DNA from: Flavobacteriaceae bacterium CG2_30_34_30
GTDB lineage: Bacteria; Bacteroidota; Bacteroidia; Flavobacteriales; Flavobacteriaceae
Assembly (NCBI GenBank): GCA_001873105.1
Contig: MNYN01000060.1
Location: forward strand, 1-64,000
Length of the DNA stretch: 64,000 nucleotides
Direction of reading: 5' to 3'
The translations under genes were made by a program, and so were the position numbers. This document shows, piece after piece, positions 29,574 to 35,629 of the stretch (positions within the stretch are counted from its first letter, which is position 1; each line of letters starts with the position of its first letter). Under the pieces are notes generated by a model. The model worked only from the letters and a program-made list of their open reading frames with translations. It did no database searches and was not told the origin of the DNA.

Positions 29574-30392
29574 TCAATATTGTTCTTCTTTATTAGGGAA
29601 ATCCCCCGATTTAATGTCCTTAGAATATTGCTGTAATGCTTGTGTCATTTCCGTATGTAAATCCATGTAACGACGTAAAAATCGCGGGCTGAATTCTGTA
29701 TTCATACCTAGCATGTCATGAATCACTAATACTTGTCCATCTACTCCGCCTCCGGCACCAATACCAATAATAGGTATGGTAAGACTTTTTGCAACTTCTT
29801 CGGCTAGCTTAGCAGGTACTTTTTCTAAAACAATGGCAAAACAACCAATTTTTTCTAATAGCAGTGCATCTTCTTTTAGCTGTTTAGCCTCTGATTCTTC
29901 TTTGGCTCTAACAGTGTACGTGCCGAATTTATATATTGATTGGGGGGTTAAACCTAAGTGACCCATCACTGGAATTCCGGCATTTAAAATACGTTTTATA
30001 GATTCTTTAATTTCCTGACCACCTTCCATTTTTACTGCGTGCCCACCACTTTCTTTCATAATTCTTATAGCAGAGCGCAGAGCTTCTTTAGGGTCGCTTT
30101 GGTAACTTCCAAAAGGCAAATCTACCACAACCAAGCTTCTGTGTATCGCTCTTACCACCGATGCTGCATGATAAATCATTTGGTCTAAGGTAATAGGTAA
30201 AGTGGTCTCATGACCGGCCATAACATTAGATGCGGAGTCACCCACTAAAATGACATCAATACCGGCACCATCTACAATTTGCGCCATAGAAAAATCATAG
30301 GCAGTAAGCATAGATATTTTTTCACCTCGTGATTTCATGTCCACCAACGTTTTGGTGGTAATGCGCTTGTAATCTTTTTTTGCTACAGACAT
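29574..30392 (-). CDS. panB: 3-methyl-2-oxobutanoate hydroxymethyltransferase PanB
   Basis: First committed step of pantothenate (coenzyme A) synthesis: transfers a hydroxymethyl group from 5,10-methylene-tetrahydrofolate to alpha-ketoisovalerate, giving ketopantoate. Family blocks are [20 protein letters not shown], then [50 protein letters not shown] and [18 protein letters not shown], with metal-binding Asp in the VGDS block. At 272 residues it is normal length. It precedes the pseudouridine synthase gene and may share its transcript. Confidence 0.96.
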
Positions 30393-30456: not shown

Positions 30457-30915
30457 ATGAAAAAAAAGATTTCTTTCTTACTAGTATTGGCTATCTCTTT
30501 TGCAAAAGCACAACAAGTAGATCCAGAAAATGAGGTTAAAAAAGTTATAACCACTTTTTTCGAAGGGTTTCATCAGCAAGATACATTATTGATGAAATCA
30601 TTGGTAAGTGCAGATGTTGTTTTACATTCTGTAATGGTTGGCACGACTAATGAAAATGTATTAAGTTCCACTACATTTGAAGTATTTTTAAATTCTATAG
30701 CTACTATTCCAAAGGAGGTTAATTTTAAAGAAAAACTGCATAGTTTTTCTATCTCTATAAACGGAGTATTAGCTACAGTAACTACCCCATATTCATTTTA
30801 TGTAAATGATACTTTAAGTCATTGTGGGGTAAATATATTTCAATTATATCTTGATAAAGACAAATGGAAAATTGTATCTATTTTAGATAGTAGGCAAAAA
30901 AAAAATTGTTATTAA
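30457..30915 (+). CDS. Secreted NTF2-like (DUF4440-type) protein
   Basis: A 152-residue protein with a signal peptide (MKKKISFLLVLAISFAKAQQ), so it acts in the periplasm or outside. The mature part begins with the helix typical of this fold (VKKVITTFFEGFHQQDTLLM), then SLVSADVVLHSV, SFSISINGVLATVTTPYSFYV and VNIFQLYLDKDKWKIVSILDS. Such SnoaL/DUF4440 folds bind small molecules or have weak enzyme activity; no function can be assigned. It is 115 bases upstream of the MACPF gene, divergent from panB. Confidence 0.75.
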   Translation: MKKKISFLLVLAISFAKAQQVDPENEVKKVITTFFEGFHQQDTLLMKSLVSADVVLHSVMVGTTNENVLSSTTFEVFLNSIATIPKEVNFKEKLHSFSISINGVLATVTTPYSFYVNDTLSHCGVNIFQLYLDKDKWKIVSILDSRQKKNCY

Positions 30916-31030
30916 AATTTAATATACTGTTAAAGTAAATTTTCATAAATTTGAAAACATAAGCATCCCCAAATTTTAAAAGGCCCCAAGCACTTTTATT
31001 AATAATAGTAAATATTATTCACTTTTAAAG

Positions 31031-34000
31031 ATGAATTCAATTTTCAGGGGAATCTTTTTTGTACTTATTACACTTTCGATTAGTTTTACAGCTACTTCGC
31101 AAAATTTAAACCTAGAAGAAAAAACCATAAATCAATCTCTTATACTGGGAGAAGGTTTTGATATTAGAAAGTTAAATCCCGGAAATTGGTCTGCACCTAC
31201 ATTGACAAAAAATCAAAGACAAGCTATAGTTACTATTCAGGTAAATAATCAGTCTATTTCCAATCTGTCTAAAAAGAATATAGAACCGAAAGGGGAAATT
31301 TATTATGTGGAGTCTGCATATGACTTTGAAAGAAAAGTGCTAGCTACAGATACATTATCTAATTTCTATTTGAGTGAAAACAGTGCGTTTTTCAATCAAC
31401 GCATTTTAGATGGAAATAACAAACCCGTTTTTGTTTACGCTATATATAAGAAACCAATACAGACATATAGAATTCCATCAGTCAAAGCAAGTAATTTAGA
31501 CACACTCTTTACCGATTATGTAAAGCGTTTGGGCAAAGATATTTCTGCAGCAGGATTTGTTCATTTATTTGGAACCCATTATGCAACGGAAGTCACAGTT
31601 GGTGGAGCATTTACATTAAGACTTACTGTAGATAGAGATGAATTTATTTATTCCCCATACACCAAAGAAGAGTTTAAAACCGAAATGGAAAAATTTATTA
31701 CCTCAAAAAATGAAGAAACCAGTTACATTAATGAATTTCTAAAGGTAAAAAGTGTAGATGTTTTTGCCAACGGAGGAGATAAAGAAGTAAGATCGTTGCA
31801 AAAATGGTTGCCAACGTTGCCCTCAAAGGCACAACCCATCGATGTAAAATTAGAACCAATTACAAATTTATTAACGACTCAAAATTTTCCCAATATAGAG
31901 GATTTAGAATCTAAAAAGGAATTACTGGATGCATTTATAGAAAAAGGAATAGCGACTGTTAAAGAACGAATTAAACAACCTGTAAAAAGCACTTATTTTC
32001 AAAAATTTTCAATTCCATTCCGGCAGCGATTGGTTAATATATTAAAAGTAGAATCAGGCAAAAACACCGATAACGACAGTCCATTTACAGGAGATATTTT
32101 CTTTGGGGGCTTTACCGATAACCAAACAGTAATAAAATCCACTTCGGTCATAGATTATGGTGGGGTGCGCCTAGAAACTTTAATTACAGATGAAGAAATT
32201 GAAGTAAATAAATTTATTGACGTCATAGTACCTCCGGAACATTTTAAAAAGGGTTTTGTCAATGTTTGGGATGAGTCCAGAAAGCTTGTAAAAGGTATGG
32301 GAAGGACTGCATTGGTTATTTCCGGGGATCCGGAAAACAGGACTTATTTTCAAGAAGCCTTGCGAAAAAAAATAACTAAAAAAGCAGAAGTAAAAAGTAT
32401 TGATAATGACAGTTATATTCTCCACTATACTTTAGAGTCCATACGTCTTGAGAATGAGATTTTCAAACAGAATACTACCATGGATTATGTTATGGATTCT
32501 CAGATTATTACTGCAGCTTCAGTTGGAGATCTTAGACTAATTAAGGAACTTTATGCTAAAGGTGCTAATGTAAGGGCAGAAGGTGTTTTAAGAGCTGCGA
32601 TTGTAAGCACACAACCTGCTGAGGTAATCAATGTATTAATAGATCAGGGTATAGTTCCCACAACGGCAGATTTAGATATGATTTTTGAAGTAAATTATTT
32701 TAATCCTGATATTGCAATTATACTCTTAGAACGCGGTGCTAAACCTAAAAACAATATGATATTTAAAGCAGTTGCTTATAGACAGCCTAATGTTATAAAA
32801 GCATTATTAAGGGAAGGTGCAATTCCTGTAAATAACGACTTAGAATTTGCCATACGATTAAAAGATGAAGAACTGGTAAGTGCAATAACCGGAAGAAAAG
32901 TACTCAAAATAGAAGATGAACAAATAGTCTATGATGAAGCCCCTCTTCCTAAAGCCACTATGGAAGAAACTGTTTATGTAGTAAAAAGAGGCGATTATTT
33001 ATCTAAAATTGCAAATTTCTATGGGGTTAATGTAAGTGATATAAAAACGTGGAATAATCTAAAAAACGATCTTATTTTCATAAACCAGAAGTTGCTCATT
33101 TTAGACGTAAATTCCATTACTTCTACTGTAACTGAAATCTCTAAATCGCAAACTTTAGTAGAGAAAGAAATTTCAACAAAACCAATAGTAGAAGTTATTG
33201 AAGTGCAAAATAATATGGTAGCTAAGAAAGAAGTTTTCTCTTTGGAAACAAGCCCGAATAGATTTACTTATAAAGTTAAAAATGGAGATATTCTTGGAAA
33301 AATTGCTCAAAAATTTAATGTAAGTGTTAATGAAATAAAAAAATGGAATAATCTGAAAAACAGTCGTTTGTACATCAACCAAGAACTTATTATTCAAACT
33401 ATAAATAAAGAACCAATCAAAAATCCAGAAATTTCTCAAATAGGGGATACTTCCCTCTCTGTAATAGAAAACAGGAAAAAAGAGGAAGAAATTGCAGTAG
33501 TAAAAGAAGAAAAAATAATATCCAAAAAAGAAATAAAAAACGCACCAGAAGTAAAACTACCTATAGCAGCAGATCAAGCTACTACAGAATACGCATTAGA
33601 AAATGCTTTAGAAGATAACAAGGAAGCAGAAGCCTTAGAATTAGTAAATAAACTTAACAAAGCAGACAATCGATTTTTGACTATTGCTTCAAGAAGAGGT
33701 CAGATAAATGTGGTAAAAGCTCTGTTAAAAAAGGGAGCTTCCCCTGACGCTGGTATAATTAATGCTATTTTCTACAGAGAGATTGGCGTGCTTGAAGAGC
33801 TTATTAAATCAGGTGCCGAATTGACATTGCAACAACTCAATTTGACCATCAAAACTGATTTTTTGGAAGCTTTTAAACTATATATAGAAAATGAGGTAAA
33901 TCCGTTGGAATCTTATATAGGGGAAACCGCAGTGCATCAAATTGTACAGACTTATAGTGAGGAACGATTTGAAATGCTTCAATTCTTAATTGATAAAGGC

Positions 34001-34198
34001 TTTGCAATTGATAACAAAAATGAAAAAGGGGAAACCCCTCTTCATAAAGCAGTGCGCATGGGTGATAGTAACCTTCCCATTGTAAAACTATTAATTGAAA
34101 ACAATGCAAATACTAAGGACAAAGACAATACTGGAAAAAGCATACTAGAGGTAAATACAGGACAGGAACTTAAAAAAGTGCTTAATAAGGCAAAATAA
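31031..34198 (+). CDS. Secreted MACPF-ankyrin-LysM-LysM-ankyrin protein
   Basis: A 1055-residue multidomain protein. It starts with a signal peptide (FVLITLSISFTATSQ). Residues ~120-370 look like a membrane-attack-complex/perforin domain: the signature is HLFGTHYATEVTVGG (His178-Gly192), i.e. Y/F-G-T-H-Y followed by GG, preceded by ISAAGFV. Residues ~490-640 hold degenerate ankyrin repeats (DLRLIKELYAKGANV, PNVIKALLREGAIPV). Two LysM domains follow at ~648-691 (VYVVKRGDYLSKIANFYGVN) and ~745-788 (FTYKVKNGDILGKIAQKFNV), joined by a charged linker. Residues ~865-1050 are more ankyrin repeats (NVVKALLKKGASPD, GETPLHKAVRMGD). MACPF proteins form pores; in Bacteroides some are secreted antimicrobials (BSAPs). 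Here LysM could hold the protein on peptidoglycan. Pore formation is inferred, not shown. Confidence 0.8.
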   Translation: MNSIFRGIFFVLITLSISFTATSQNLNLEEKTINQSLILGEGFDIRKLNPGNWSAPTLTKNQRQAIVTIQVNNQSISNLSKKNIEPKGEIYYVESAYDFERKVLATDTLSNFYLSENSAFFNQRILDGNNKPVFVYAIYKKPIQTYRIPSVKASNLDTLFTDYVKRLGKDISAAGFVHLFGTHYATEVTVGGAFTLRLTVDRDEFIYSPYTKEEFKTEMEKFITSKNEETSYINEFLKVKSVDVFANGGDKEVRSLQKWLPTLPSKAQPIDVKLEPITNLLTTQNFPNIEDLESKKELLDAFIEKGIATVKERIKQPVKSTYFQKFSIPFRQRLVNILKVESGKNTDNDSPFTGDIFFGGFTDNQTVIKSTSVIDYGGVRLETLITDEEIEVNKFIDVIVPPEHFKKGFVNVWDESRKLVKGMGRTALVISGDPENRTYFQEALRKKITKKAEVKSIDNDSYILHYTLESIRLENEIFKQNTTMDYVMDSQIITAASVGDLRLIKELYAKGANVRAEGVLRAAIVSTQPAEVINVLIDQGIVPTTADLDMIFEVNYFNPDIAIILLERGAKPKNNMIFKAVAYRQPNVIKALLREGAIPVNNDLEFAIRLKDEELVSAITGRKVLKIEDEQIVYDEAPLPKATMEETVYVVKRGDYLSKIANFYGVNVSDIKTWNNLKNDLIFINQKLLILDVNSITSTVTEISKSQTLVEKEISTKPIVEVIEVQNNMVAKKEVFSLETSPNRFTYKVKNGDILGKIAQKFNVSVNEIKKWNNLKNSRLYINQELIIQTINKEPIKNPEISQIGDTSLSVIENRKKEEEIAVVKEEKIISKKEIKNAPEVKLPIAADQATTEYALENALEDNKEAEALELVNKLNKADNRFLTIASRRGQINVVKALLKKGASPDAGIINAIFYREIGVLEELIKSGAELTLQQLNLTIKTDFLEAFKLYIENEVNPLESYIGETAVHQIVQTYSEERFEMLQFLIDKGFAIDNKNEKGETPLHKAVRMGDSNLPIVKLLIENNANTKDKDNTGKSILEVNTGQELKKVLNKAK

Positions 34199-34204
34199 AA
34201 ATAA

Positions 34205-35629
34205 TTAGCAATCGCTCATATTTACCCTTACTGCCAAACCGCCTTCACTGGTTTCTTTGTATCTTGAACTCATATCTTTAGCAGTTTCCCACATCGTTTC
34301 AATAACTTTATCTAAAGGTACTTTTGCTTTAGTTGCATCCCCATCTAAAGCCATTTCTGCAGCATTGATTGCTTTTATGGCTCCCATGGCATTACGCTCT
34401 ATACATGGTATTTGCACCAGTCCGCCTATGGGATCACAGGTAAGTCCTAAATGATGTTCCATAGCAATTTCACTGGCCATTTGCACCTGTTCCGGGGTGC
34501 CGCCCATGAGTTCGGTTAATGCTCCCGCTGCCATTGCAGAAGAAACACCTATTTCTGCCTGACAACCGCCCATAGCTGCAGAAATAGTAGCTCCTTTTTT
34601 AAACAAACTTCCTATTTCTCCTGCTACCAGCATAAACTGTTTTACATGATTAAAATTAGCATTGTGGTTTTCAATAACCATATAGTACATCATCACTGCG
34701 GGTATTACCCCGGCACTGCCATTAGTAGGAGCAGTAACCACTCTCCCCAAAGAAGCATTAACTTCATTAACGGCAAGGGCAAAACAAGTTACCCATTTTA
34801 GGATTTGGCGAAACTTTACTTCCGTATTTCTAATCGCTTCAATCCATTCGTCGGGAGTAGTGTAAGCAGCATCCCCTATAAGGCTTTGGTGGGTATGAAA
34901 CGCACGACGGGTAACGTTAAGCCCACCGGGAAGGATGCCCTCGGTATGACAACCCACATACATGGACTCCAGCATTACTTGCCATATGGCTTTAAGTCCT
35001 GCATCAATTTCGGCATCACTGCGTAATGATCGCTCATTTTCTAAAACAATTTCAGAAATTTTCTTTTTTTCAGCTTTGCAATGCACTAATAGTTCTGATG
35101 CTTTTTCTATAGGAAATGGAAACGAGTTGAATTGTTCTTTTTTAAGTTTAGCACTTTTTCTTTCTTTTTTTACTACAAAACCGCCACCAATAGAATAAAA
35201 GGTGGAGCTTGTTTTAGTGCCATTTTGCAGAACCGCTCTAAATGTCATTCCGTTAGGGTGAAAGTCTAAAAATTTTTTGTGGAACACCACATTTTCTTCT
35301 ATTTGAAATGCAATGGCTTTTTCGCCATTAAGCACCAGTTTTTTGTTTGTTTTGATAAAATTAATTTCTGTGGTAATGGATTCGACAGGTATGGTGACAG
35401 GGTCATAACCACAAAGACCTAAAACACTTGCTAAATCTGTAGCGTGTCCTTTTCCTGTTAAAGAAAGAGAACCATATAAATCGACATAAACTTCAGCAAC
35501 ATTTTCAAACTGCTTAGCGATTTTCAGTTCTTCAATCCATCGTTGTGCAGCCCTCCATGGACCAAGAGTGTGGGAGCTAGAAGGACCAACACCAATTTTG
35601 AGCATATCAAAAACACTTATACTTTCCAT
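34205..35629 (-). CDS. sdaA: L-serine ammonia-lyase (iron-sulfur dependent), SdaA-type
   Basis: Deaminates L-serine to pyruvate with a [4Fe-4S] cluster. Single-chain form of 474 residues. The N-terminal beta domain (about 1-155) begins MESISVFDMLKIGVGPSSSH, the usual substrate region, and the C-terminal alpha domain has the cluster cysteines in GGCQAEIGVSSAMA, TCDPIGGLVQIPC and the VTAPTNGSAGVIPAVMMYY block. The start ATG at 35629 is preceded on the minus strand by a TATATTTG -7 element (35654-35647). Ends 6 bases after the converging MACPF gene. Confidence 0.95.
   Translation of the reverse strand: MESISVFDMLKIGVGPSSSHTLGPWRAAQRWIEELKIAKQFENVAEVYVDLYGSLSLTGKGHATDLASVLGLCGYDPVTIPVESITTEINFIKTNKKLVLNGEKAIAFQIEENVVFHKKFLDFHPNGMTFRAVLQNGTKTSSTFYSIGGGFVVKKERKSAKLKKEQFNSFPFPIEKASELLVHCKAEKKKISEIVLENERSLRSDAEIDAGLKAIWQVMLESMYVGCHTEGILPGGLNVTRRAFHTHQSLIGDAAYTTPDEWIEAIRNTEVKFRQILKWVTCFALAVNEVNASLGRVVTAPTNGSAGVIPAVMMYYMVIENHNANFNHVKQFMLVAGEIGSLFKKGATISAAMGGCQAEIGVSSAMAAGALTELMGGTPEQVQMASEIAMEHHLGLTCDPIGGLVQIPCIERNAMGAIKAINAAEMALDGDATKAKVPLDKVIETMWETAKDMSSRYKETSEGGLAVRVNMSDC

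What the first reader, a model, noticed from the sequence alone, without database searches (positions are those of the whole stretch)
31031..34198. MACPF domain combined with ankyrin repeats and two LysM domains in one secreted protein
The sequence shows a signal peptide, the MACPF hallmark HLFGTHYATEVTVGG (residues 178-192), two LysM domains (~648-691, ~745-788) and ankyrin repeats on both sides of them (~490-640, ~865-1050). MACPF proteins form pores and in Bacteroides act as secreted antimicrobials (BSAPs). I know of no common MACPF protein with LysM and ankyrin modules together. LysM could anchor it to peptidoglycan and the ankyrin arms could bind a partner or target protein. Function is inference.
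Basis: partly seen in the sequence, partly recalled or inferred. Interest (0 to 1): 0.82.

Follow-up and report, generated by a model that had tools for sequence, protein, structure and literature searches.

The report
Exported MACPF protein with LysM-split ankyrin arm
A flavobacterium-like bacterium exports a protein that joins the perforin-like domain used by immune and toxin proteins to a chain of ankyrin repeats, and in this genus two cell-wall-binding LysM domains have replaced the middle of that chain; it belongs to a small undescribed family whose target and killing ability are still unknown.

Summary
Confirmed: window 31031-34198 encodes a 1055-aa protein with a Sec-type signal peptide, a MACPF domain (Pfam E=7.5e-16), two LysM domains and ankyrin repeats on both sides. 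It is not a one-off. Nine further genomes of the same family carry SP - MACPF - new ~135-aa domain - ankyrin repeats. Only this genus has LysM (3 of 5 species, one clade); there the pair replaces the middle of a roughly 23-repeat ankyrin chain, and one LysM-less relative stops exactly where LysM begins here. Two more distant genomes encode a jacalin-MACPF protein near a separate exported ankyrin protein, so MACPF and ankyrin act as a pair. The gene sits at an old locus (panB...sdaA), is under purifying selection, diverges fast, and is lost in two congeners (one remnant, one empty site). The most conserved stretch is ankyrin repeats 3-5 (23 of 40 residues invariant), not the MACPF motif. It is not a BSAP: no lipoprotein cysteine, no BSAP C-terminal domain, no receptor-type neighbour. 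Pore formation is unproven and no usable structure model was obtained. Best reading: an envelope-exported MACPF-ankyrin effector, held on peptidoglycan here by LysM. New variant of a known kind; interest about 0.5.

The parts
31031..34198 (+). whole gene, 1055 aa, MACPF-ankyrin protein with two LysM domains
   Evidence: ORF; Pfam; orthologues L002/L003 43% identical over full length
31031..31102 (+). Sec-type signal peptide, residues ~1-24, no lipobox cysteine
   Evidence: sequence reading; no Cys in first 40 aa
31136..32005 (+). MACPF domain, residues ~36-325
   Evidence: Pfam 130-300 E=7.5e-16; profile-profile 99.1% to L061 MACPF
31568..31606 (+). MACPF signature FGTHYATEVTVGG, residues 180-192
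   Evidence: pattern present in all ten members
32066..32470 (+). middle domain, residues ~346-480, conserved in the family, no known match
   Evidence: alignment; no credible Pfam or PDB match
32483..32896 (+). N-terminal ankyrin arm, residues ~485-622, 5 repeats
   Evidence: alignment; helix pairs; omega 0.03-0.07
32726..32851 (+). near-invariant ankyrin block, residues 566-607 (LERGAKPKNNMIFKAVA...REGAIPVNND)
   Evidence: 23 of 40 residues invariant in ten proteins
32966..33100 (+). LysM 1, residues ~646-690
   Evidence: HMM
33263..33397 (+). LysM 2, residues ~745-789
   Evidence: HMM
33581..34183 (+). C-terminal ankyrin arm, residues ~851-1051, ~7 repeats
   Evidence: Pfam Ank_2 943-1032; helix pairs
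30457..30915 (+). small exported NTF2/SnoaL-like protein, upstream neighbour; not a specific partner
   Evidence: 247 of 397 family genomes carry a relative, mostly without MACPF
29574..30392 (-). panB, left flank of the conserved locus
   Evidence: synteny in L056-L060, L063-L065; named from sequence and general knowledge
34205..35629 (-). sdaA-type serine dehydratase, right flank
   Evidence: synteny in L056, L057, L063-L065; named from sequence and general knowledge

Best explanation
An exported, envelope-associated MACPF-ankyrin effector. Shown by sequence: a Sec-type signal, a MACPF domain, an undescribed middle domain and a highly constrained five-repeat ankyrin block form one conserved unit; what follows is exchangeable (about 18 more ankyrin repeats, nothing, or two LysM domains plus about 7 repeats). 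Inferred: the unit oligomerises through the MACPF domain, the ankyrin block holds a conserved partner or packs on the MACPF, and the downstream arm gives reach or anchorage. In this genus the LysM pair takes over anchorage by binding peptidoglycan, so the protein is most likely held on the cell wall in the periplasm (or on wall material after release) and acts on a nearby membrane. Whether that act is pore formation is open.
For: Domains; orthologues with the same architecture in two congeners; eight fused genomes plus two with MACPF and ankyrin as close neighbours among 14 MACPF-bearing genomes of 397; in the window genome Ank_2 is found only in this gene, and not at all in the congener that lost it; LysM carriers form one clade, 95/99; the short relative G122 ends where LysM begins here; purifying selection, omega 0.12-0.17, and 0.03-0.07 in the first ankyrin arm; invariant block; no lipobox and no type IX secretion tail among NCBIfam hits, which leaves the periplasm as the default place.
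Against: No experiment. No usable structure model (pLDDT 35 and 42 without an alignment). Peptidoglycan binding is inferred from the LysM family. Patchy occurrence and fast divergence would also fit a protein sent out against other cells. The LysM-less relatives show that wall binding is not needed for the family's general function.
Confidence: 0.5

Rival explanations
1. A released antibacterial pore-forming toxin that works like a BSAP: the ankyrin arms recognise a surface protein of related bacteria, LysM binds exposed or periplasmic peptidoglycan, and MACPF perforates the membrane.
For: MACPF domain; patchy distribution, 10 of 397; fast divergence, 43% between congeners against 83-95% for sdaA and panB; loss with a remnant in G001 and an empty site in G002; BSAPs use the C-terminal part for receptor choice (PMC12853789).
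Against: No lipobox; no BSAP C-terminal domains; no receptor, outer-membrane or glycan gene beside it; the most conserved part is an ankyrin block, whereas a receptor-binding part in an arms race should vary; old fixed locus rather than a mobile one; second hairpin segment short.
Confidence: 0.25
2. A non-lytic envelope scaffold: the MACPF fold serves only for oligomerisation or adhesion, as in MACPF proteins that do not lyse, and LysM plus ankyrins hold an envelope complex together.
For: Distance from the GG of the signature to the conserved W is 64-71 residues here, 75-103 in three other flavobacterial MACPFs and 100 in C8beta (read from the alignment); hairpin regions are charged and lack a clear alternating pattern; exported with LysM; purifying selection.
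Against: The difference in length is modest against the nearest homologue (67 against 75) and amphipathy was only scored crudely; frequent loss is odd for an envelope scaffold.
Confidence: 0.2
3. A weapon or adhesin against eukaryotes (grazers, algae, invertebrates), in the manner of ankyrin-bearing pore toxins such as latrotoxins.
For: Distant relatives carry lectin-like jacalin and hemopexin domains near an ankyrin protein.
Against: No latrotoxin-type or lectin domain in this protein; LysM points to peptidoglycan or chitin rather than to animal membranes; no other host-directed system was examined.
Confidence: 0.05

Closest known systems
Bacteroidales secreted antimicrobial proteins (BSAPs)
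   Same: Bacteroidota, exported, MACPF domain followed by a variable C-terminal part
   Different: BSAPs are surface lipoproteins with an N-terminal cysteine and export signal (PMC12853789); here no such cysteine. Their C-terminal domains are DUF5648, the Bt_3439 type and others; here ankyrin repeats and LysM. No receptor gene next door.
Jacalin-MACPF proteins of the same bacterial family
   Same: Homologous MACPF; ankyrin protein encoded close by
   Different: Ankyrin part on a separate gene; lectin-type domains in front; longer hairpin segments; no LysM
Complement C8beta, C6, C9 and perforin
   Same: MACPF signature and core (C8beta E=1.2e-6)
   Different: No ankyrin or LysM; longer segment after the signature in C8beta
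Latrotoxins and bacterial latrotoxin-like proteins
   Same: Pore-type protein with many ankyrin repeats (PMC3482391)
   Different: No MACPF in them by general knowledge; no latrotoxin C-terminal domain among the Pfam hits here
MltD-type lytic transglycosylases with two LysM domains
   Same: LysM pair, possible source of the cassette; a short linker motif is alike in G000
   Different: No transglycosylase domain here; the LysM tree does not fix the source

Membership tests
MACPF/CDC superfamily | MACPF profile match above curated cut-off | tested here: met
   Pfam 59.4 bits against 21.5; relatives match independently
MACPF/CDC superfamily | signature [YWF]-G-[TS]-H-[FY]-x6-G-G | tested here: met
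   the relative G122 has GTHL instead of F/Y
MACPF/CDC superfamily | MACPF fold | tested here: inconclusive
   single-sequence model pLDDT 35; profile matches to solved MACPFs, E=1.2e-6
MACPF/CDC superfamily | two helix clusters able to form membrane hairpins | tested here: inconclusive
   segments present but short and charged
MACPF/CDC superfamily | pore formation | not testable with these tools
   needs purified protein
BSAP | N-terminal lipidated cysteine and surface export signal | tested here: not met
   no Cys in first 40 aa; definition from PMC12853789
BSAP | MACPF domain | tested here: met
BSAP | C-terminal domain of a known BSAP group (PF18885, PF20779/PF20785) | tested here: not met
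   not among Pfam hits; groups from PMC12853789
BSAP | receptor-type gene next to the toxin gene | tested here: not met
   neighbours are panB, a pseudouridine synthase, NTF2-like and sdaA
BSAP | kills related strains | not testable with these tools
   needs a competition assay
LysM proteins | LysM profile match | tested here: met
   E=1.7e-28, two copies; kept in two congeners
LysM proteins | peptidoglycan binding | not testable with these tools
   inferred from the family
Ankyrin-repeat proteins | ankyrin profile match, repeated | tested here: met
   Ank_2 E=1e-20
Type IX secretion cargo | C-terminal sorting tail (TIGR04183/TIGR04131 type) | tested here: not met
   not among NCBIfam hits; the proteins end with the last ankyrin repeat
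Latrotoxin-like toxins | latrotoxin C-terminal domain | tested here: not met
   not among Pfam hits
Polymorphic toxin systems | dedicated immunity gene directly downstream | tested here: not met
   next gene is sdaA on the other strand; the upstream NTF2-like gene is common without MACPF

The most novel reading that the evidence does not exclude
A new class of bacterial MACPF machine in which a conserved ankyrin block is an obligatory working part (fused or as a companion gene), and in which one genus has converted the free-reaching version into a peptidoglycan-tethered one by replacing half of the ankyrin chain with LysM domains.
Probability: 0.35. Interest if true: 0.72.

Novelty: new variant of a known kind. 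Interest (0 to 1): 0.52.

Why it matters
Bacterial MACPF proteins with tested functions are few and are mostly lipoprotein toxins of gut Bacteroidales. This family would add a flavobacterial branch with a different export route, an undescribed middle domain and ankyrin repeats as the conserved partner module. The natural swap of ankyrin repeats for LysM domains, and the version split over two genes, make it possible to test which part targets, which part anchors and whether MACPF acts as a pore.

Tried and rejected
(1) BSAP membership: rejected (lipobox, C-terminal domains, neighbours). (2) The upstream NTF2-like gene as a dedicated partner or immunity gene: rejected, a relative is in 247 of 397 genomes and it stays in G001 after the MACPF gene is gone. 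(3) Curli link: G216 and G232 carry the gene tail-to-tail with a csg operon, but the other copies do not, and the window genome's own csgG lies on another contig: not general. (4) Phage or viral origin: no relative in viral contigs. (5) Source of the LysM cassette: similarity to MltD-type LysM including a linker motif, but the 45-aa tree does not resolve it. (7) Pfam and PDB searches for the middle domain: only chance-level matches. (8) The PADLOC hit PDC-M72A covers ankyrin residues only (886-1046), so it is not evidence of a defence role. (9) Promoter: a TAAATTTG box at 30946-30953 lies upstream, but the motif occurs at chance level in the window. (10) search for related loci in genome contigs returned only LysM relatives.

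Full report
OBSERVATION. The ORF at 31031-34198 (+) encodes 1055 aa. Pfam-A gives MACPF (130-300, E=7.5e-16), two LysM (E=1.7e-28) and ankyrin (E=1e-20), all well over their cut-offs. NCBIfam gives only LysM- and ankyrin-based partial matches. The MACPF call is supported in three further ways: nine relatives each keep the signature and those scanned match PF01823 on their own; a family profile finds complement C8beta (E=1.2e-6) and other solved MACPFs; profile-profile comparison aligns residues ~36-326 with the MACPF of a jacalin-MACPF protein at 99.1% probability.

ANATOMY. Signal peptide ~1-24 without cysteine; MACPF ~36-325; a middle domain ~346-480 that is conserved (mean pairwise identity 39%) but has no credible Pfam or PDB match; five ankyrin repeats ~485-622; LysM 646-690; variable linker; LysM 745-789; variable linker; about seven ankyrin repeats ~851-1051. 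The low-confidence model of the second half still shows five helix pairs, a strand-helix-helix-strand LysM and six to seven helix pairs in the expected places. The most conserved stretch of the family is not the MACPF signature but ankyrin repeats 3-5: 23 of 40 residues at 566-605 are invariant in ten proteins. Selection agrees: omega is 0.12 (G003/G004) and 0.17 (G170/G354) over the gene, and 0.03 and 0.07 for the first ankyrin arm, against 0.45 for the linker after LysM 2 (the synonymous distances for G003/G004 are near saturation).

RELATIVES. The genomes searched are unnamed; the family is taken to be Flavobacteriaceae from gene content and general knowledge. Full-length orthologues with both LysM domains are in two congeners, 43% identical. 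A profile of residues 25-480 finds 10 of 397 genomes of the family and, in broader samples of phylum and order, nothing outside this family. Outside the genus the full-size proteins are SP-MACPF-middle domain-ankyrin, 1096-1152 aa, with no LysM. By hand count G216 has about 23 repeats; in the window protein some 11 central repeats are replaced by the LysM segment. G122 is only 661 aa and ends exactly where LysM starts here. The LysM carriers form one clade, 95/99, so one gain of LysM in this genus is the simplest reading. In G202 and G363 a jacalin-MACPF protein (with a hemopexin repeat in G363) lies near a separate exported ankyrin protein; in G363 the two genes are 5 bp apart, in G202 one gene lies between. 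Of 14 MACPF-bearing genomes among 397, eight carry the fusion and two the neighbour arrangement; the other four MACPF genes have no BLASTP-similar ankyrin gene nearby. Ankyrin genes are few: in the window genome the Ank_2 profile rings only in this gene. MACPF and ankyrin are thus linked beyond chance, which supports a joint function.

LOCUS. The gene stands between panB and sdaA in this genus and in G170/G354; G173, G261 and G122 also have it beside panB. G216 and G232 have it elsewhere, tail-to-tail with a curli operon. In the genus, G001 keeps only about the last 70 codons behind the NTF2-like gene, and G002 has 143 bp between panB and sdaA with no trace. So the gene is old at this place, useful enough to be under purifying selection, and dispensable. 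It diverges faster than its neighbours (43% against 83% for sdaA and 95% for panB between G000 and G003). The upstream NTF2-like gene is widespread without MACPF and is not a dedicated partner.

MECHANISM. Shown: export signal, domain content, conserved unit, exchangeable tail, selection. Inferred: oligomerisation through MACPF, partner binding by the ankyrin block, peptidoglycan tethering by LysM. With no lipobox and no type IX tail the default place is the periplasm; LysM fits that. Pore formation is open: the segment from the signature GG to the conserved W is 64-71 residues in the family, 75-103 in three other flavobacterial MACPFs with both landmarks, 100 in C8beta (read), and it is charged; but 67 against 75 in the nearest homologue is no strong argument. 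I put 0.5 on a wall-held envelope effector, 0.25 on a released BSAP-like toxin, 0.2 on a non-lytic scaffold and 0.05 on an anti-eukaryote role.

KNOWN KINDS. BSAPs are surface lipoproteins whose C-terminal domain sets the receptor (PMC12853789). This protein shares the MACPF and the idea of a variable C-terminal part but fails the lipoprotein, C-terminal-domain and neighbourhood features. No paper in the held library combines MACPF, ankyrin repeat and Bacteroidetes, and the MACPF-LysM papers are unrelated; most subscription journals and preprints are not held, so this is not proof of novelty. Verdict: new variant of a known kind.

Noticed in passing
L061:8869-16166, L062:1-7359: Small gene sets in two genomes of the family: a repeat-rich exported protein, a jacalin-MACPF protein (hemopexin repeat in L062) and an exported ankyrin protein. 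In L061 the MACPF C-terminus and the ankyrin protein's N-terminus each resemble the thiol-activated cytolysin beta-sandwich weakly (E=0.0018 and 0.016, below cut-off); the two stretches do not align to each other by BLASTP.
   Followed up: partly
L065:9367-9582: Gene remnant in a congener: about the last 70 codons of the MACPF-ankyrin gene directly behind the NTF2-like gene, frame-shifted at its start.
   Followed up: yes
L054:141-6681 and L055:12454-18908: Curli gene set (in L054 curlin repeats, CsgE, CsgF, CsgG by Pfam) tail-to-tail with the MACPF-ankyrin gene in two genera.
   Followed up: partly
window 30457-30915: Exported NTF2-like protein with an invariant SHCGVN motif and a second invariant cysteine near the end (possible disulfide), common in the family; close relatives of the window's type sit next to panB.
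   Followed up: partly
window 32066-32470: Undescribed conserved domain (GDxFxGGF ... VWDDxKKLxKG ... TIDxDxYxIxYSLE) seen only in this protein family.
   Followed up: partly
L081:8652-9932: A MACPF protein without an evident signal peptide that also matches the fungal MACPF_1 profile (E=3.8e-16), in another genome of the family.
   Followed up: no
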